This document shows, piece by piece, positions 1-42,778 of a stretch of DNA of 42,778 nucleotides. The notes under the pieces were generated by a model. The model did not search any database, was not told where the DNA came from, and saw only the letters and a list, made by a program, of their open reading frames with translations. Source of the stretch: a virus; the IMG/VR virus record IMGVR_UViG_3300018083_000017, positions 1-42,778 of that record. The stretch is one strand, 5' to 3'. A program made the translations under genes and the position numbers. The first letter of the stretch is position 1. Every line of letters begins with the position of its first letter.

Positions 1-123
1 GCAGGTAGAGCTTCGGTTCTACGCGGGCCTGGGCAAGCAGCGGCGAGAGATCGAGCGCAAGCCGGGGAACATCGTTGACCTGTGGAACAAGGCGAACAGC
101 CGGTTCAGCGTGTTCGAGCTCAC
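1..123. repeat. Terminal direct repeat, left copy
   Basis: These 123 bases are identical to 42656-42778. They lie inside the portal coding sequence, and the reading frame passes through the join without a break. The simplest reading is a circular or circularly permuted genome whose assembly ends overlap, rather than a biological terminal repeat. Confidence 0.97.
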
Positions 124-22755: not shown

Positions 22756-23294
22756 TCGTGGTCGAGCTGGCGACGCTGAAGGCGCTCATCGAGCTGTGCG
22801 GTGAGCTGAACGACGCGCTGGAGGACGCGAGCGATTACGGCAAGCTGGTGGACTCGGAGGGCGACGCGGAGGAGATGGCGCGCAAGCAGGCGTGGGACGA
22901 GGCCGGGAACAAGTACCACCACGTGCGGGCGCTGAAGCTGGCGCGCGAGGCGCTGGAGGCGGCGGACGAGCTGGCCGAGTGCGGGCTCGAGGCGTACGAC
23001 GCGTACGAGATCGGCAAGTGCCACGAGTTCGAGGCGACGGGCGCGCCTGACGGCATCGAGTCGTACTTCGAGCGGTGCGACGAGCCGGGGTGCGAGGGCC
23101 AGGAGGACCGCGAGGACCACAAGGCGCTGCGGACGGTGTTCACGGTGTACGGGCACATGCCGGGCCGCGGGGTCGAGGCCATCAGCGACCACGAGACGAT
23201 GAGCATGGCGACCGAGCAGCTGAGCCGGATGGTTGGGCGGCGCGTCGTGGCGGAGCCGAGAGCCACAGCGCTGATTTACCGGATGCCCGAGTAA
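22752..23294 (+). CDS. Hypothetical acidic protein
   Basis: This 180-residue protein starts at GTG 22752, overlapping the previous stop. It is very acidic and helical in the first two thirds (LEDASDYGKLVDSEGDAEEMARKQ is typical in composition), with Cys residues in the segment ERCDEPGCEGQEDRED that may bind metal. A highly acidic, DNA-mimic-like composition is seen, but a mimic function is only a thought. No family recognised. Confidence 0.65.
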   Translation: MIVVELATLKALIELCGELNDALEDASDYGKLVDSEGDAEEMARKQAWDEAGNKYHHVRALKLAREALEAADELAECGLEAYDAYEIGKCHEFEATGAPDGIESYFERCDEPGCEGQEDREDHKALRTVFTVYGHMPGRGVEAISDHETMSMATEQLSRMVGRRVVAEPRATALIYRMPE

Positions 23295-23327
23295 CGGAGT
23301 TACGGATACACCACCGAGGTACGAACC

Positions 23328-23365
23328 GGCGCGTCCGGGCGAGTGCGAAGCTCACCGGGCGCGCC
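23328..23365 (+). other. Hairpin upstream of the RadC-like gene
   Basis: GGCGCG (23328-23333) pairs with CGCGCC (23360-23365) around an interior that can form a smaller GAG/CTC stem. It lies in the 89-base leader before 23384, with no T-run. Confidence 0.35.
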
Positions 23366-23383
23366 AGAGAGGACTCACACGGG

Positions 23384-24016
23384 ATGGAAGTCAGGGAAGC
23401 AGCGACGCCGCAGGACTGGGAGACGGTGAGCACGAAGCAGCTGCTGGACGTGGCGTGCCACGGGGTCGGGCTGACGGCAGCCGCGCAGAAGCGGATCGAG
23501 CAGAGGATGCCGGAGCTGGCCGCGATGGGCGCGAAGGAGATGGAGCGGAAGCTGCGGCTGACGCGCAGGGCGTCGGATCGGCTGTTCGCGGCGGTGCAGC
23601 TGGGCGCCAGGGCCGCTGCCAGGGCGACGGCGAAGGCGGGACGGGTGGCGGTGCGCGGGCCGGAGGACGTGCTGCCGCTGGTGCGGGACCTCGTGCACTC
23701 GAAGCGCGAGCACTTCGTGGTGCTGTTGCTGAATGCCAGGCACGAGTTCGAGCGGCGGGAGACGGTGAGCATCGGCAGCCTGAACGCGAGCATCGTGCAC
23801 CCGCGCGAGGTGTTCGTGCCGGCGATCCTCCACAGCGCGGCGTCGCTGGTCATCGTGCACAACCATCCGAGCGGCGACCCGGAGCCGTCCGAGGAGGACC
23901 TGAGCATCACGAAGCGACTGGTCGAGGTCGGCGAGCTGTGCGGCATCGGGATTCTGGACCACGTGATTGTCGCGAAGCGTGGGACGGTGAGCTTCAGGGC
24001 GCGGCAGCTGCTGTAG
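23384..24016 (+). CDS. RadC/JAB-domain protein
   Basis: This 210-residue protein starts at ATG 23384. Residues 15-60 form a helical lead, and about 90-210 the RadC JAB domain. The JAMM zinc motif is intact: His159 and His161 in HNHPSGDPEPSEED with Asp172, and HFVVLLLNARHE before it. RadC-type proteins are frequent in phages and mobile elements; the fold is that of metal-dependent isopeptidases, but the substrate is unknown and a DNA-repair role is unproved. Last gene of the P3 operon, 21 bases before promoter P4. Confidence 0.88.
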   Translation: MEVREAATPQDWETVSTKQLLDVACHGVGLTAAAQKRIEQRMPELAAMGAKEMERKLRLTRRASDRLFAAVQLGARAAARATAKAGRVAVRGPEDVLPLVRDLVHSKREHFVVLLLNARHEFERRETVSIGSLNASIVHPREVFVPAILHSAASLVIVHNHPSGDPEPSEEDLSITKRLVEVGELCGIGILDHVIVAKRGTVSFRARQLL

Positions 24017-26340: not shown

Positions 26341-26373
26341 TTGACGCCCGGTAGATCCGGGCACACGTTTCAG

Positions 26374-27135
26374 ATGCGGCCTGAGCCGCAGAAAGGCTGG
26401 TGCTGGGTGAATGGTCTGATGGTCCACGCAGGAGGCTGGGACGCAACGCTGGACGACCTTCGTTCCGCAGTGGTCCCGGAGCCTACGAAGACGCATGTGC
26501 CCGTGCCGTACCCGCGCTTCGTCGAGGAAGTGAAGTTCAGCCTGCAGCGGTTCGGGCTGACGGCGGTTGCGGAGCAGTTCGCGCTCGGCCGCGAGGGGCA
26601 GCAGATGTTCGGCGTGCTGCAGGTGAAGAACGGAACGGCGGCGGACGACTGGGGCATGTCGCTGGGCCTGCGGTCGAGCTACGACAAGTCGCTGGCGCTC
26701 TCTATGGTCGCGGGGAGCAAGGTGTTCGTGTGCGACAACCTCGCGTTCTCGGGCGAGGTGCACAGCAGCCGCAAGCACACGTCGAACGTGCTGCGCGACC
26801 TGCCTGGGATGGTGTACGACATGCTGGAGCGCACGGCGTCGTACAAGGGCGAGCTGGAGCGTGAGATCGCCGCCTTCAAGCTGGTCGAGGTGAGCGTGCA
26901 GGACTCCGACCACCTGATGGTCGAGGCGGTGCGCAAGGACGTGATCCCGGCGTCGGACCTGCCGCGACTGATGCACGAGTGGGACGAGCCGAAGCACGAC
27001 GAGTTCAAGCCGCGCACGGCGTGGAGCCTGTTCAACGCGTTCACGGAGGTGGCGAAGCGCCGGTCGCCTGGAGCGCAGATCGACGCGACGCTGCGACTGA
27101 GCAAGATGTTCCGCGAGGAGTTCGTCACCAACTGA
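26374..27135 (+). CDS. DUF932-like protein
   Basis: This protein is 253 residues if it starts at ATG 26374; ATG 26419 would also serve, and neither has a good ribosome site. GLRSSYDKSLALSMVAGSKV with FVCDNLAFSGEV is the core pattern of the DUF932 family, widespread in phages and plasmids near recombination or replication genes. The C-terminal part (TAWSLFNAFTEVAKRRSP) also fits. The molecular function of the family is not known; it may bind DNA. A terminator-like hairpin follows. Confidence 0.75.
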   Translation: MRPEPQKGWCWVNGLMVHAGGWDATLDDLRSAVVPEPTKTHVPVPYPRFVEEVKFSLQRFGLTAVAEQFALGREGQQMFGVLQVKNGTAADDWGMSLGLRSSYDKSLALSMVAGSKVFVCDNLAFSGEVHSSRKHTSNVLRDLPGMVYDMLERTASYKGELEREIAAFKLVEVSVQDSDHLMVEAVRKDVIPASDLPRLMHEWDEPKHDEFKPRTAWSLFNAFTEVAKRRSPGAQIDATLRLSKMFREEFVTN

Positions 27136-27153: not shown

Positions 27154-27178
27154 GGGCACAAGGATGTGCCCATTTCTT
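27154..27178 (+). terminator. Probable terminator or attenuator before recombination genes
   Basis: GGGCACA (27154-27160) pairs with TGTGCCC (27165-27171) around AGGA, followed by ATTTCTT. The next ribosome site GGAGG begins at 27181. The tight placement suggests partial termination that sets the level of the following genes. Confidence 0.55.
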
Positions 27179-27189
27179 CAGGAGGAAGC

Positions 27190-28224
27190 GTGGGTGAACT
27201 GGTGAAGGTCGAAGACATGCCCGAGTGGGCACGTCACGCGATGCAGGCGTACCTCGGCAAGGACGTGAACCTGCTGCTGCCGGCAGTGCCGGTGAACGCT
27301 GAGCTGGGCTTCGCGCACAAGCCGATGGTGTCGCTGGTACGGGTGTCCGCAGACCCGCGAGACGGCGATTGCTACAAGGTCGGCTCGCGGAAGAACGGCA
27401 GCGAGTGGGAAGACCTGTTCGCGCTGGCGAAGCCCGCACTGGACCGAGTGGCCAGCGCAGCGGGCATCAACTTCGTCACGATGCGCGTGGACGACCGTTC
27501 GAGCCGTGACCGCTGCGAGGTGGAGTGCCGCGCGGCGATGAAGAACGAGTCGGGCGCGTGGGTGGTGAAGACGTACCGCAAGGAGCTGGACATGCGGGAC
27601 GTGGAGGACGCTCGGCGCCAGGAGCGCGCGAAGGCGAACGAGCGAGCCGGGAAGGACAAGAAGACGCCCGAGCAGCTGGAGGACGAGCTGCGGAACGAGA
27701 TGGCGCAGTACCGCAAGCACCTCGCGGCACGCACTGAGACGGGCGCGATTCTGCGAGCGGTGCGCGGGCAGCTGGGGATCCGCTCGCAGTGGACGAAGGG
27801 CGAGCTGGCGAAGCCGTTCGTGGTGATGCGCGTGGACTACGCGCCTGACGCGAGCGACCCGGTGGCGCGGCGGTTCCTGATGGAGCAGGGCGCTCGCGCA
27901 AGCGAGGCGCTGTTCGGCCAGATGGGACGCGCCAGGGAAATCGTCGGCGCGGAGGTCGTGCACGAGGCCGGGCGGGTGACGGTCGAGGCTGACGACTTGC
28001 CGGTGGGCGAGGAGCCGGTGGAGGAGGCGACGCCGGCCCGCATGATGGTGCTGGCAGAGAACGCGAGCGAGACGGACCGGCAGGAGTACATCAGGCGCGG
28101 CGTGGAGCTGCTGGGCATCGAGCCGGGCGAGTACATCAAGCTGGTCGAGGCGTGCGGGTACGACATGAAGAAGATCGCGGGCGAGATCGAGCGCCGTGCG
28201 AACGAGAACGGAGGTCAGGGATGA
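27190..28224 (+). CDS. Putative single-strand annealing (RecT-like) protein
   Basis: This 344-residue protein starts at GTG 27190 behind CAGGAGGAAGC. Segments EDLFALAKPALDRVASAAGI and RTETGAILRAVRGQLGIRS with GELAKPFVVMR resemble phage recombination proteins that lie beside exonuclease genes. A Glu/Lys-rich helical region lies between. The last 60 residues (MMVLAENASETDRQEYIRR onward) look like a separate helical tail. It overlaps the SbcD-SbcC fusion by four bases, so an annealing partner for that nuclease fits the context. Family membership is not proved by motif alone. Confidence 0.45.
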   Translation: MGELVKVEDMPEWARHAMQAYLGKDVNLLLPAVPVNAELGFAHKPMVSLVRVSADPRDGDCYKVGSRKNGSEWEDLFALAKPALDRVASAAGINFVTMRVDDRSSRDRCEVECRAAMKNESGAWVVKTYRKELDMRDVEDARRQERAKANERAGKDKKTPEQLEDELRNEMAQYRKHLAARTETGAILRAVRGQLGIRSQWTKGELAKPFVVMRVDYAPDASDPVARRFLMEQGARASEALFGQMGRAREIVGAEVVHEAGRVTVEADDLPVGEEPVEEATPARMMVLAENASETDRQEYIRRGVELLGIEPGEYIKLVEACGYDMKKIAGEIERRANENGGQG

Positions 28225-31200
28225 AGGTTCTCCAGTTCGGAGATCTGCACCACGACGGTGCGACGCACGAGAACACGAGTCGTGCGATGAACGAGATTCT
28301 GCTGCTGGCGGAGCAGGTGAAGCCCGACGTGATTGTGAACACGGGCGACCTGGTGATGCGGCGGGGCCACGTGAGCCCCGAGCTGGGGCGGGAGCTGCGG
28401 CAGTTCCACGCGATTCTCGCGAGGCACGCGCACGTCATCGTGGTGGCGGGCAATCACGACTTGCCGGCGCTGAACGGAGACACGGGCGCCGTCGAGGGCC
28501 TGCTCGGGGTGTCCAGCGGCGAGGAGAACATGACGCTGGTCGAGTACCCGGAGGTCGTCGTCGCGGCGGGCCAGGAGTTCGTGTGCGTGCCTTACCCGCC
28601 GCGCAGCGTGGACAAGGCAGGGAAGCCGCTGTCGAGTGAGGTGGCGTCAGCCCTGCTGCTGGACGTGGTGCGCGACCTCTGCGCCAGGGCGCCAGGAGCG
28701 CCGCTGGTGTTTCACGGAACGATTCGCGGCTCGATGCCAGGCTCCGAGGCGGGGATGGGGTTCGACGTGGGACTCCAGCTCGACGAGTCACAGATCCCGG
28801 AGACAGTGCCGTGCGTGATGGCCGGGCACATCCACAAGCCGCAGACGATTGGGCGCGCGGTGTATCCGGGCTCGACGACGGCGCTGAGCTTCGGTGAGGA
28901 GCAGCACGCGCACGGTGCGACGGTGTGGGTGAGCGGACCGGCTGGCTGGGTGCCGACGTTCGCCGAGCTCGAGCCCGCGGTGCGGTACCTGACCATCGAC
29001 CTGCGGGCAGACGAGGACCAGATGGCGAAGCTCGACCGGGTGCTGGAGCAGAACCAGTCGCGGAACGAGCGGACGATCGTGCGAGTGCTGTATCGAGCCC
29101 GGCGTGGAGTGAGCGCGGGAGCGACGGGGCAGGCCATCCGAGGCCACTGCCGGTCGGCCGGCGTGAAGGAGTGCCGTCTGGTGCCCGAGCTGGTGGCGGA
29201 CGAGCGCACGACGGCGGTGAGGAAGTTCGACGACGTGCGCGGGTCGCTCGCTGCGTGGGCGAAGGAGCAGGGGTTGAAGCCCGAGGTGCAGCGCGGGATG
29301 GCGGCGCTCGAAGTAGGAGCGTCAGCGGAGCTGGCCGGCCGGTTCGTCGAGCAGATGGGGCGAGGGAGCTACCGGCTGACCGGGGCGAAGTGGCACGACT
29401 TCCGCAGCCTGGGAAGCGGACTGTGGGAGGACGCCCAGCTCGGGCGGCTGGTGTGCATCCAGGGCGAGAACGCGAGCGGGAAGTCGAACCTGGCCGAGGT
29501 CGAGGCGTTCGCGCTGTGGGGCCGGAGCCCTCGCGGCCGCGTTTCGCTGGCGGACGTGCCTAGGCGCGGGACGAGCGGGTGCTCGGTCGAGGTGGCCATC
29601 GAGCACGGCGGCGAGAAGTGGTCGGTGATCCGCACGGTGAAGGTGACGGCGACCGGGACCGGGACAGGGGCGGTGAGCCTGTTCAGGTGGGCCGATGGCG
29701 GGTGGGCGGACCGCGGGGGCCAGTCGGCAGACACGCAGGCGGCAATCGAGGCGATGGTCGGGTCGTGGGAGATGTATCTGGCGACCAGGTTCGCGAGCCA
29801 GGGCGACGTGGACCGGCTGCTGAGCATGAAGCCGGCGGAGCTGAAGGACGTGCTGCAGGAGGCGGCGGCGCTCGACCAGTACGCCGATCGCGAGGCGTGG
29901 GCGGCGAAGCTGGAGCCGGGCGTCAAGGAGCTGCTGGCGAAGGCGCAGGGCAGGCTGGACGCTGCCAGGGAGCGGTGCGGGCTGGCGCGGGAGAAGCTAG
30001 AGACGGCGCGCGAGATGTTGGTGACCGCCCAGCGGCAGCAGGACGAGAGCCACGAAGCTGCCAAGCGGGCAGAGGGTGAGCTGGGGAACGCGCGCACGAG
30101 GGCGGCGAACGCCGAGGCACGCCTGGAACAGACGAAGGCAGAGGCGAAGCGGCTGGACGACCTGCGCCGGCAGCTGAGGGCGGCACAGAGCGAGGACCAG
30201 GCCGCGGCGCTGGAGGCCGGGAAGCTGTTGGTCGAGCTGACCGAGTTCCGGCGCGACCTGCAGCTGATGACGATGAGCGAGGCGCCGGAGCAGCAGGACG
30301 TGGCGGCAGCCGAGGCGGCGCGGGACGCGGTTCAGGCGGACCTGCAGGCGTTCCACGAGGCGAAGTCGGCGGCCCGGATCGCGCTGCACGCCAAGTGGGA
30401 CGAGCGGCTGAAGGCGTCCGACGAGAAGCTGTCGATGGCGCGGCAGGACCAGCTGGACGCGGAGAGGGCGCTGGCGAGGGAGCTGGGGGCCTACGAAGCC
30501 GCGGTGCGGGCGCTGGAGCGCCGCAGGGACGAGCTGACGAAGACGGCGGCGATGGCGAAGGCGGTCCTGTTCGGGGAGGGTTGCGAGCCATGCCCGCTCG
30601 CGCGCTCCGCCTTGGACGCGAGCAGGGCGCTGGGCGAGCTGTCTGAGCCTGACGCCGGACCGCGCGATCGGGCACTGACGGCGAAGAAGGATGCGGCCGT
30701 GGTGGTGGAGATGTTCCACGTGGAACATGAGCGGCTGAAAGAGCAGAAGTCGCTGGAGCTGCACGCGCTGGACGAGCTGGGACTCGTGGAACGTGACGAG
30801 TTGCAGACGAGGGTCCGGGTGCTGGATGAGCGGGTGAAGTGGGTGCGAGAGGCCGAGTCGAAGCGGCTGTCGCACGCTGGCCGGCTGGAGCGCGCCAGGG
30901 CGGAAATCGCGAAGACGCAAGCGGTTCTGGACGCGGCGAACGAGCGGTGCGAGCGGGCGCGGGCCAGGCTCCGAGATTTCGGAGGCATCGACGAGGGCGA
31001 GGTGGACCTGCGGGGGCCGACGAACACGCTGGCGTACGAGCGGGGCCTGGTGGCTGAGCTCGAGTCCGAGCTGAAGCGGATGGCGCAGCGGGAGAGGGAC
31101 GCGATTGAGGATGCGGCCACGGTGCGAGCGGCGGTGACCCGGCTGGAGGCTGAGGCGAAGCCGCCGGTGGATGAGCACCGGGCGGTCGAGGTGGTGTCGC

Positions 31201-31721
31201 TGGAGCTGGAGAGCGTGCAGGAGTACCGGCGGGCGATGGGCCGGGACGGGATCCCGTTCCTCAAGGTGGTGGAGTCGATCGGCGCACTGGAGAGCTGGGC
31301 GAACGAGTTCCTGGGCCTGGGCGACATGCGGCTGACGATCGAGGGCAGCCGGGAGACGCAGAAGGGCGAGAAGCGAGACGAGGTGGTGGCGCGGTACACG
31401 AACCGATTCGGCGGGCACGAGCTGTCGGCGGCGTCCGGGTTCGAGCGGGTGGCGCTGGGGTACGCGCTCCGGGCGGCGATGGCTCGGCTGCACGCGGAGA
31501 ACCGGGGCATCCGGGTGGGTCACTGGGTGGCGGACGAGGGCTGGGGCAGCTTCGACGAGGCGAACCTGAGCCTGGGCCAGCAGATGCTGGAGCGCCTGGG
31601 GGCGGCATTCGACCGCGTATTCTTCATCAGCCACGTGGCCGCGATCCGGGAGGTTGCTGAGACGGTGATGACGGTGGAGGTGGACACGGAGAACGGCTCG
31701 CGGGTGAGCATCACCAGTTGA
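28221..31721 (+). CDS. Single-chain SbcD-SbcC (Mre11-Rad50) nuclease/ATPase fusion
   Basis: This 1,166-residue protein starts at ATG 28221 (GGAGGTCAGGG). Residues 1-about 330 are a calcineurin-like SbcD/Mre11 nuclease: Asp8 and His10 (GDLHHD), Asp43 (NTGDL), GNHD at 77-80, His165 (FHGT) and GHIH at 202-205. Residues from about 385 are SbcC/Rad50: Walker A GENASGKS at 415-422, Q-loop area ATRFASQGDVDRLLS, long coiled coils broken by the zinc-hook pair CEPC at 788-791, signature LSAASGFERVALG from 1068, and Walker B ending in Asp1105-Glu1106. In bacteria these are normally two genes. The complex cuts DNA ends and hairpins. Coiled coils are short for the family. All key residues seem intact, so it is probably active. 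Confidence 0.9.
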   Translation: MKVLQFGDLHHDGATHENTSRAMNEILLLAEQVKPDVIVNTGDLVMRRGHVSPELGRELRQFHAILARHAHVIVVAGNHDLPALNGDTGAVEGLLGVSSGEENMTLVEYPEVVVAAGQEFVCVPYPPRSVDKAGKPLSSEVASALLLDVVRDLCARAPGAPLVFHGTIRGSMPGSEAGMGFDVGLQLDESQIPETVPCVMAGHIHKPQTIGRAVYPGSTTALSFGEEQHAHGATVWVSGPAGWVPTFAELEPAVRYLTIDLRADEDQMAKLDRVLEQNQSRNERTIVRVLYRARRGVSAGATGQAIRGHCRSAGVKECRLVPELVADERTTAVRKFDDVRGSLAAWAKEQGLKPEVQRGMAALEVGASAELAGRFVEQMGRGSYRLTGAKWHDFRSLGSGLWEDAQLGRLVCIQGENASGKSNLAEVEAFALWGRSPRGRVSLADVPRRGTSGCSVEVAIEHGGEKWSVIRTVKVTATGTGTGAVSLFRWADGGWADRGGQSADTQAAIEAMVGSWEMYLATRFASQGDVDRLLSMKPAELKDVLQEAAALDQYADREAWAAKLEPGVKELLAKAQGRLDAARERCGLAREKLETAREMLVTAQRQQDESHEAAKRAEGELGNARTRAANAEARLEQTKAEAKRLDDLRRQLRAAQSEDQAAALEAGKLLVELTEFRRDLQLMTMSEAPEQQDVAAAEAARDAVQADLQAFHEAKSAARIALHAKWDERLKASDEKLSMARQDQLDAERALARELGAYEAAVRALERRRDELTKTAAMAKAVLFGEGCEPCPLARSALDASRALGELSEPDAGPRDRALTAKKDAAVVVEMFHVEHERLKEQKSLELHALDELGLVERDELQTRVRVLDERVKWVREAESKRLSHAGRLERARAEIAKTQAVLDAANERCERARARLRDFGGIDEGEVDLRGPTNTLAYERGLVAELESELKRMAQRERDAIEDAATVRAAVTRLEAEAKPPVDEHRAVEVVSLELESVQEYRRAMGRDGIPFLKVVESIGALESWANEFLGLGDMRLTIEGSRETQKGEKRDEVVARYTNRFGGHELSAASGFERVALGYALRAAMARLHAENRGIRVGHWVADEGWGSFDEANLSLGQQMLERLGAAFDRVFFISHVAAIREVAETVMTVEVDTENGSRVSITS

Positions 31722-32458: not shown

Positions 32459-32533
32459 GCGGACCGGGCAAGAAGGTCGGTGCGCTCGGTTATCCCACCG
32501 AGAGAGCCGGTTCGAATCCGGCGGTCCGCTCCA
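32459..32533 (+). tRNA. tRNA, glycine-type, with 8-base anticodon loop
   Basis: Cloverleaf elements: acceptor GCGGACC (32459-32465) with GGTCCGC (32523-32529), T arm GCCGG-TTCGAAT-CCGGC (32506-32522), D stem GCA/TGC, and encoded CCA (32531-32533). The anticodon stem CTCGG (32485-32489) with CCGAG (32498-32502) leaves an 8-base loop, TTATCCCA, instead of seven. G1-C72, C2-G71, U73 and the CC in the loop fit known bacterial glycine identity elements. The anticodon cannot be fixed: UCC, CCC or a four-base UCCC/AUCC reading are all possible. U8 is replaced by G. It could be a frameshifting tRNA or a degenerate one. Confidence 0.8.
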
Positions 32534-32536
32534 GAT

Positions 32537-32577
32537 GGGACCGGCCGAGCTGCCAGCGGCCGGTCCCGGAGTCTTTC
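32537..32577 (+). terminator. Hairpin after tRNA, probable terminator/processing signal
   Basis: GGGACCGGCC (32537-32546) pairs perfectly with GGCCGGTCCC (32558-32567) around an 11-base loop, followed by GGAGTCTTTC. It begins four bases after the tRNA CCA end. It may end the tRNA transcript. Confidence 0.55.
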
Positions 32578-32588
32578 AGGGAGGGGAG

Positions 32589-33971
32589 ATGTTCCAAGGC
32601 GTCGTGTGTGGCAGCGCCAGGGAAATGATCGCGCGGTACGTGAAGGACCACGGGCCGTTCGCGGGGGCGCACGTGCTGTGCTCGGGCAACCTGAGCATCG
32701 AGACGACGCTCCGCATGAACGGCCACACGGGCAGGCTGACCGGCAGCGACGTGAGCACGTACACGTGCGCGCTGGGGACCGCGATAGCCGGCGGTGATCT
32801 GCCGATGAAGATGAATCGCGAGTCGGACTGGTGGCGCGAGTGGATGGAGCCGTTCGACGACTGGATGGCCGCAGACCAGGATTCGCGCGCGGCGGCGGTG
32901 GCGCTGCTGCTGGACCTGATGCCGATGGTGAGCGAGAAGAACCAGTACGAGCGCCGGATGCTGCAGGGCTACATCAGCCGCCTGGGCAAGATGCTGGCGA
33001 CGACGCTGACGCGCGTGCGGAAGAAGAAGGACGAGGTTCGCCTGGAGGAGTTCCACGCGCGCGATGCGTGGGAGCGCGCGGCCGAGCTGCCGGACGGTGA
33101 TCTGGTGCTGACGTTCCCGCCGACGTACGAGCTTGGCTACGAGAAGCTGTACAAGCGGCTCGACAGTCTCGTGGCGTGGGAGCGGCCCGGCTACAAGGAG
33201 CTGACGAGCGGAGCGGAGTTCGCGCAGCGGATCGTGTCGGCTCACGCCGGGCCGTGGATTATCGGAGCTGAGGAGCGGAAGGACGAGCAGGAGGCCATCG
33301 TGGGCAAGCCGATCGGCCAGGCTACGCGCGGCGGGCAGAAGAACGTGTACCTGTATTCGAGCCTGGAGCTCGAGCCTCTGGTGGTGAGGCGGCAGGTGCC
33401 GGTGGAGCCGGTGGCGTGGCCGTTCCTGAAGGACGACGACGAGCTGAGCGCCGACTCGAAGCTGGAGGTGCACGAGATCGGCTCGAACGCTGCGAACTAC
33501 ATCCGGCAGCTGTTCGTGTCCGTCGAGGTGGGCCAGGCCGCAGCTCAGTGGGCGCACGCGGTGACGGTGGACGGCAAGATTTGCGGCGTGCTGATGTGGC
33601 AGGCGTGGCGGCTGTTCCCGGTGATGGTGGACAAGCAGGACCGGACGGCGGACACGATGTACATGATGGCGGACCTGTGCGTGCCTTCCGATCGCTACCC
33701 GCGGCTGTCGAAGTTGGTGCTGCTCGCGAGCCTGGCGCACGAGACGAAGGAGTGGCTGCGGAAGAAGGCGATTCAGCGCGTAGATCTCGTGCTCACGACG
33801 GCGTTCAGCAAGCACCCGGTGAGCATGAAGTACCGGGGCGTTTACGACCTGCTGAAGCGCGAGCGGGAGAACGGTGTGTGGAAGCTGAACTACATCGGGA
33901 GGACAGGCGAGTGGACGCTCCAGCAGGCGATGCGGGCGTGGCACGAGAGACACTGCTCGAAGACGCTCTGA
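32589..33971 (+). CDS. DNA-modification protein: methyltransferase-like plus Mom/GNAT-like domains
   Basis: This 460-residue protein starts at ATG 32589 behind GAGGGGAG. Residues 31-38 (CSGNLSIE) look like an S-adenosylmethionine site, followed by SDVS at 53-56; TFPPTYELGYEKLYKRLD (175-192) is like the catalytic PPY loop. The layout agrees with phage proteins named putative antirestriction adenine methyltransferases. About 310-440 (VEVGQAAAQWAHAVTVDGKI, MYMMADLCVPSDRYPRLSKL) resembles the GNAT-like Mom family, which modifies adenine in phage Mu. It should protect phage DNA from host restriction. A ParB-like gene follows and overlaps it. Confidence 0.6.
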   Translation: MFQGVVCGSAREMIARYVKDHGPFAGAHVLCSGNLSIETTLRMNGHTGRLTGSDVSTYTCALGTAIAGGDLPMKMNRESDWWREWMEPFDDWMAADQDSRAAAVALLLDLMPMVSEKNQYERRMLQGYISRLGKMLATTLTRVRKKKDEVRLEEFHARDAWERAAELPDGDLVLTFPPTYELGYEKLYKRLDSLVAWERPGYKELTSGAEFAQRIVSAHAGPWIIGAEERKDEQEAIVGKPIGQATRGGQKNVYLYSSLELEPLVVRRQVPVEPVAWPFLKDDDELSADSKLEVHEIGSNAANYIRQLFVSVEVGQAAAQWAHAVTVDGKICGVLMWQAWRLFPVMVDKQDRTADTMYMMADLCVPSDRYPRLSKLVLLASLAHETKEWLRKKAIQRVDLVLTTAFSKHPVSMKYRGVYDLLKRERENGVWKLNYIGRTGEWTLQQAMRAWHERHCSKTL

Positions 33972-42415: not shown

Positions 42416-42778
42416 GTCGATGATGCTCCGGCTGATGCGCCGCCTGGGGCTCGTGCAGACGAAGATCGTGCGAATGCCGCAGGAGGGCGATGGCGGCGGC
42501 GACGGCGGCGGCGACGGTGGTGGGACTGGCGGATTCGGCGGGACGGTGTTCTGGACGCCGAACGGACCCGTGTTCGGGTCGGAGCTGCAGACCGCAGCGT
42601 ACGAGAACGTGGCGACGGTGTACGCATGCGTGAGCAAGATTGCCTGGTCGATCGCGCAGGTAGAGCTTCGGTTCTACGCGGGCCTGGGCAAGCAGCGGCG
42701 AGAGATCGAGCGCAAGCCGGGGAACATCGTTGACCTGTGGAACAAGGCGAACAGCCGGTTCAGCGTGTTCGAGCTCAC
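42399..42778 (+). CDS. Portal-MuF fusion, N-terminal part
   Basis: The gene starts at ATG 42399 (GGAG six bases upstream; ATG 42420 is a second choice) and runs off the end, continuing at the repeated start of the window, in frame, to 2035. It opens MSGSSESMMLRLMRRLG, has a Gly/Asp-rich linker of GDGG repeats, then the usual portal opening TVYACVSKIAWSIAQVELRF. Positions 42656-42778 duplicate 1-123. Confidence 0.9.
   Translation, partial: MSGSSESMMLRLMRRLGLVQTKIVRMPQEGDGGGDGGGDGGGTGGFGGTVFWTPNGPVFGSELQTAAYENVATVYACVSKIAWSIAQVELRFYAGLGKQRREIERKPGNIVDLWNKANSRFSVFEL
42656..42778. repeat. Terminal direct repeat, right copy
   Basis: Identical to 1-123. It shows that the window wraps a circular sequence, and one copy should be removed to count the genome once. 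Confidence 0.97.

What the first reader, a model, noticed from the sequence alone, without database searches (positions are those of the whole stretch)
28221..31721. Single polypeptide joining SbcD (Mre11) nuclease and SbcC (Rad50) ATPase
One uninterrupted frame of 1,166 residues holds all phosphoesterase motifs (Asp8/His10, Asp43, GNHD 77-80, His165, GHIH 202-205) and then Walker A (415-422), a CEPC zinc hook (788-791), an ABC signature (1068-) and Walker B (1105-1106). Cellular and T4-type systems use two chains (SbcD/SbcC, gp47/gp46). A covalent 1:1 nuclease-ATPase with a zinc hook would fix the stoichiometry and may be a compact natural Mre11-Rad50.
Basis: partly seen in the sequence, partly recalled or inferred. 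Interest (0 to 1): 0.78.

Follow-up and report, generated by a model that had tools for sequence, protein, structure and literature searches.

The report
Phage Mre11–Rad50 (SbcD–SbcC) fusion protein
A small bacterial virus makes, as one protein, the DNA-end-cutting nuclease and the ATP-driven clamp that cells usually make as two partners (Mre11 and Rad50), right behind a likely DNA-annealing protein; such fusions have been known since 2011, so this is a good new member of a known kind, not a new kind.

Summary
Window 28221-31721 (+) is one open frame of 1,166 codons. Profile searches and Foldseek on an AlphaFold model place both halves. Three phage contigs (36-38% identical) carry the same intact fusion, so it is not an assembly error. 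The window ends in an exact 123-bp direct repeat, so it is probably a complete 42.7-kb phage genome.

The novelty claim does not hold. SbcD/SbcC fusions were described in 2011 (PMC3175470) in Mimivirus, a Bacillus phage, plasmids, bacteria and eukaryotes. I also found them in Microcystis phage Mel-JY01 and a human-gut phage fragment.

New here: the gene just upstream (ATGA overlap) is in the same place in all four phages, and its model best matches Rad52/ERF/RecT annealing proteins. The genome has no recognisable RecA, RecT, ERF or YqaJ. Best reading (about 0.6): a two-part recombination module in which the fused enzyme processes DNA ends and the Rad52-like protein anneals the strands. In three relatives the hook cysteines are spaced CX4C, not CX2C. 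Biochemistry is inferred.

The parts
28221..31721 (+). SbcD-SbcC (Mre11-Rad50) fusion gene, 1,166 aa
28221..28964 (+). Mre11/SbcD phosphoesterase core (aa 1-~248) with D8, H10, D43, GNHD 77-80, H165, GHIH 202-205
   Evidence: Pfam Metallophos 4.7e-11; Foldseek to Mre11 structures
28983..29354 (+). Capping-like domain (aa ~255-323) and helical region (aa ~336-378) in the place of the Mre11 helix-loop-helix that binds the Rad50 coiled-coil base; joins the ATPase without a long linker
   Evidence: AlphaFold secondary structure, (pLDDT below 50 for aa 323-382, so the second part is inferred)
29364..29873 (+). N-terminal ATPase lobe (aa ~382-551): Walker A 415-422, Q527
29874..30554 (+). Ascending coiled-coil arm (aa 552-778)
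   Evidence: helices in the model
30582..30593 (+). Zinc-hook motif CEPC (aa 788-791)
   Evidence: helix break at 779-791
30594..31235 (+). Descending coiled-coil arm (aa 792-1005)
   Evidence: helices in the model
31236..31718 (+). C-terminal ATPase lobe (aa ~1006-1166): signature SASGFER, Walker B D1105 E1106, H-loop H1138
27166..28224 (+). Upstream partner gene (352 aa, phrog_13782), ATGA overlap with the fusion; predicted Rad52/ERF/RecT-like single-strand annealing protein
   Evidence: conserved upstream in L003, L004, L005; model and Foldseek to RAD52 and viral annealing proteins
26341..27135 (+). DUF932 protein, next gene upstream; same order in L005 only

Best explanation
The gene encodes a phage Mre11-Rad50 (SbcD-SbcC) enzyme as a single chain. 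Two copies would pair through the nuclease dimer and the ATP-bound heads, with coiled-coil arms of about 220 residues (about 33 nm at 0.15 nm per residue) meeting at the hook cysteines. ATP cycling would admit DNA ends, hairpins or blocked ends to the metal-dependent nuclease and leave single-stranded tails. The upstream Rad52-like protein would then anneal those tails. Together they would form a two-part recombination module, like lambda Exo/Beta or RecE/RecT in logic, serving recombination-dependent replication, concatemer formation or break repair of this roughly 43-kb phage. Shown: the fusion, both folds, the motifs, the conserved linkage to the upstream gene. Inferred: dimer form, nuclease products, annealing activity, role in the phage cycle.
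For: Intact frame and motifs. Both halves matched by sequence profiles (six-sequence profile: Rad50 1.2e-39, Mre11 9.1e-27, E. coli SbcC 4.5e-26) and by fold. Metal-binding and ATPase residues invariant in four fusions. Intact fusion in L003, L004, L005. Upstream gene conserved in position in all four; RAD52 chains fill ranks 1-10 of its PDB fold search and viral Rad52/ERF/RecT proteins recur in BFVD. No RecA, RecT, ERF or YqaJ family found in the record, which has a 123-bp exact terminal repeat and so is probably complete. Streptococcal phages have sbcC beside the annealing gene sak4 (PMC8093625).
Against: The match of the upstream gene to RAD52 is weak in PDB (E 0.03, about 92 aligned columns, TM 0.13) and modest in BFVD (E 5.8e-4); its model has mean pLDDT 70.8 from four sequences. 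The fusion model has pTM 0.35 and low confidence in the ATPase heads, so relative domain placement is not known. No biochemical data. Small unscreened ORFs could hide another exonuclease or recombinase.
Confidence: 0.6

Rival explanations
1. The fused enzyme is real but acts without the upstream protein, as a T4 gp46/47-like resection or genome-end processing enzyme, or by clearing hairpins or degrading host DNA.
For: SbcD/SbcC pairs are common in phages and serve recombination-dependent replication in T4 (PMC3175470). The fusion also occurs without a recognised annealing neighbour in Microcystis phage Mel-JY01.
Against: Position-conserved annealing-like gene in all four relatives; no RecA family in the record.
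Confidence: 0.25
2. The phage uses the enzyme mainly against the host or other mobile elements (host DNA attack, SMC-like exclusion), not in its own recombination.
For: Weak PADLOC matches of the ATPase part to mad3 (5e-9) and LmuB (1.5e-5).
Against: Full Mre11/Rad50 motif set; PHROG SbcC and SbcD matches far stronger; linkage to an annealing-like gene.
Confidence: 0.08
3. The frame is an assembly or sequencing artefact that joins two genes.
For: A near case exists: Listeria phage LMTA-57 has one fused frame of 3,030 nt where its close relative VAfA18 has two genes spanning 3,031 nt, as one indel would give.
Against: Three relatives at 36-38% identity have the same fusion without stops; third-position GC is even across the join.
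Confidence: 0.02

Closest known systems
Mre11/Rad50 (SbcD/SbcC) fusion proteins of Yoshida et al. 2011 (Mimivirus R555, Bacillus phage 0305phi8-36, Clostridium kluyveri plasmid, Deferribacter megaplasmid)
   Same: Nuclease N-terminal, ATPase C-terminal, one chain, found on mobile elements (PMC3175470)
   Different: Here both P-loop segments and all catalytic residues are present (per the paper, the Bacillus phage lacks one NTPase segment and R555 has changed metal residues); small phage; linked to a Rad52-like gene. No direct sequence comparison with these proteins was made here
Microcystis phage Mel-JY01 WWT39521.1 (1,066 aa) and gut phage fragment MT837445
   Same: Same fused order with ATPase and phosphoesterase motifs
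   Different: 18% identity to Mel-JY01, a 190-kb phage; annotated only as 'AAA domain containing protein', or not at all
T4-type gp47/gp46 and other phage SbcD/SbcC pairs (Moorella phage MTATph1, Brochothrix phage A9)
   Same: Same PHROG families phrog_100 and phrog_77
   Different: Two chains
Lambda Exo/Beta and RecE/RecT modules
   Same: Proposed logic: end-processing enzyme next to an annealing protein
   Different: Unrelated nuclease; the shared role is inferred here

Membership tests
Mre11/SbcD nuclease | Phosphoesterase motifs DxH, GD, GNHD, H, GHxH | tested here: met
   All present and invariant in four fusions; Metallophos 4.7e-11; Foldseek to Mre11. NCBIfam SbcD scores are below their curated cut-offs, so it is a divergent phage-type member
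Mre11/SbcD nuclease | Capping domain and C-terminal helix-loop-helix | tested here: inconclusive
   Capping-like secondary structure at 255-323; helices at 336-378 with pLDDT below 50
Rad50/SbcC ATPase | Walker A, Q-loop, signature, Walker B, H-loop in two lobes separated by a coiled coil | tested here: met
   the signature is SASGFER, not the usual LSGGE
Rad50/SbcC ATPase | CXXC zinc hook at the coiled-coil apex | tested here: met
   CEPC 788-791 in the helix break; relatives have CX4C. Zinc binding not testable
Mre11/Rad50 fusion proteins | Both domains in one uninterrupted chain, nuclease first | tested here: met
   and relatives
Mre11/Rad50 fusion proteins | ATP- and metal-dependent nuclease activity | not testable with these tools
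   Needs biochemistry
Rad52-superfamily annealing protein (upstream gene) | Rad52/RecT/ERF core fold | tested here: inconclusive
   RAD52 chains rank 1-10 in PDB at E 0.03-0.11, viral Rad52 homologue 5.8e-4; no Pfam RecT or ERF match

The most novel reading that the evidence does not exclude
A compact two-gene phage recombination system in which a single-chain Mre11-Rad50 replaces the lambda-type exonuclease and works with a new, very divergent family of Rad52-like annealing proteins, with a hook that tolerates CX4C spacing in sister phages.
Probability: 0.4. Interest if true: 0.5.

Novelty: new member of a known kind. Interest (0 to 1): 0.36.

Why it matters
A fixed 1:1 Mre11-Rad50 of about 130 kDa with all catalytic motifs would simplify structural and single-molecule work on how the nuclease and ATPase communicate. 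The linkage to a Rad52-like gene suggests a self-contained recombination pair, perhaps usable for recombineering in high-GC bacteria. The CX4C hooks in relatives test how strict the zinc-hook geometry is.

Tried and rejected
Assembly artefact: rejected, because three divergent relatives share the intact fusion. Separate expression of the ATPase from an internal start: ATG379 at the boundary has no ribosome site, upstream GTG/TTG/ATG codons with partial sites (321, 352, 360) are not conserved in relatives, and L003 has no ATG/GTG/TTG in that region. Close cellular source: the genome-contig scan (one scan, two short peptide patterns, so close relatives only) gave only distant matches; two Gemmatimonadota loci are split SbcD/SbcC and the third is a 290-aa phosphoesterase frame. 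Listeria LMTA-57 as a clean second fusion: doubtful, one-nucleotide difference from split VAfA18. Bradyrhizobium plasmid hit spanning both halves: two neighbouring in-frame genes of the canonical type, not a fusion. Metagenome scan: not available. DUF932 as an annealing protein: the literature search gave nothing useful.

Full report
Observation. Window 28221-31721 (+) translates to 1,166 residues without a stop. The start has a GGAGG site and shares ATGA with the stop of the gene before it. Third-position GC is 0.82-0.98 in every 60-codon block, the join included. The window is a whole virus record of 42,778 bp whose first and last 123 bases are identical, so it is probably a complete genome; the terminase lies at one end and the portal at the other.

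Identity of the halves. Pfam finds Metallophos at 1-207 (4.7e-11) and, below its cut-off, AAA_23 at 410-652. PHROGs finds the SbcD-like family at 1-355 and the SbcC-like family at 374-1163. PDB sequence searches find Thermotoga Mre11 and archaeal and Thermotoga Rad50; a six-sequence profile reaches Rad50 at 1.2e-39, Mre11 at 9.1e-27 and E. coli SbcC at 4.5e-26. An AlphaFold model from four sequences (mean pLDDT 60.7, pTM 0.35) is best for the nuclease part, weak for the ATPase heads, and breaks the coiled coil at 779-791, where CEPC lies. Foldseek returns Mre11 structures with TM-score (by target length) of about 0.6-0.7, and Mre11-Rad50-Nbs1 and SMC chains.

Relatives. Three IMG/VR contigs of 39.7-42.9 kb carry full-length fusions at 36-38% identity over the alignment. 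They form one clade with the window (100/100). In that tree fused and split proteins need at least two changes, but branches are long and the Listeria case may be a one-base indel. Other fusions are in Microcystis phage Mel-JY01 and in a gut phage fragment whose 5' end is missing. The PHROG SbcC profile also has positions before the usual SbcC start that match the SbcD end of a fused protein, which suggests that fused members are already in that library. No cellular genome in the scan held a close relative; that scan used two short patterns only.

Hook. The window has CX2C. L003, L004 and L005 have C-X4-C at the same place, after a conserved FGE. The literature treats CXXC as highly conserved (PMC9569753). 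Whether CX4C binds zinc is unknown.

Context. The gene before the fusion (27166-28224) is found upstream of the fusion in all three relatives (in L003 about 330 bp intervene), and a scan of viral contigs for it returned exactly those three. It has no Pfam family. Its model (mean pLDDT 70.8) gives RAD52 chains at ranks 1-10 in PDB, with weak E-values (0.03-0.11), and Rad52, ERF and RecT proteins of phages in BFVD (best 5.8e-4). The consistency of the names, more than any single score, supports an annealing protein. No RecA, YqaJ, ERF or RecT family is found in the record. Hence the proposed pair: a fused end-processing enzyme plus an annealing protein. A published parallel in arrangement is sak4 beside sbcC in streptococcal phages (PMC8093625).

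Known or new. Yoshida and colleagues described Mre11/Rad50 fusions in 2011: thirteen sequences including Mimivirus, one phage and plasmids. [quoted passage not shown] The present protein fits that description. It is a new member of that kind, with a better-preserved set of motifs than the published Bacillus phage case, in a small phage and with an informative neighbour.

Limits. No reads, biochemistry or multimer prediction were available. The 2011 sequences were not compared directly. The annealing role of the neighbour is a structural lead, not a proof.

Noticed in passing
L003 8001-11459, L004 4450-8229, L005 7992-11168: Hook cysteines spaced C-X4-C after a conserved FGE instead of the usual C-X2-C; the window has C-X2-C.
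   Followed up: partly
window 1-123 and 42656-42778: Exact 123-bp direct terminal repeat, so the record is probably a complete circular or circularly permuted phage genome.
   Followed up: yes
window 32459-32533: ARAGORN calls a tRNA with an undefined four-base anticodon (atcc); Rfam gives no match at the gathering score, so it may be false.
   Followed up: partly
window 32535-33971: One protein joins a phage DNA adenine methylase-like domain (PF22555) and a phage GNAT-like domain (PF22559).
   Followed up: no
window 23075-24016: RadC-like JAB domain at the C-terminal end of a 313-aa frame; possible DNA repair protein.
   Followed up: no
L010 2501-5530 and L016 3001-6031: Listeria phage LMTA-57 has sbcD and sbcC fused, its close relative VAfA18 has them split, with lengths differing by one nucleotide: a very recent fusion or a sequencing error.
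   Followed up: partly
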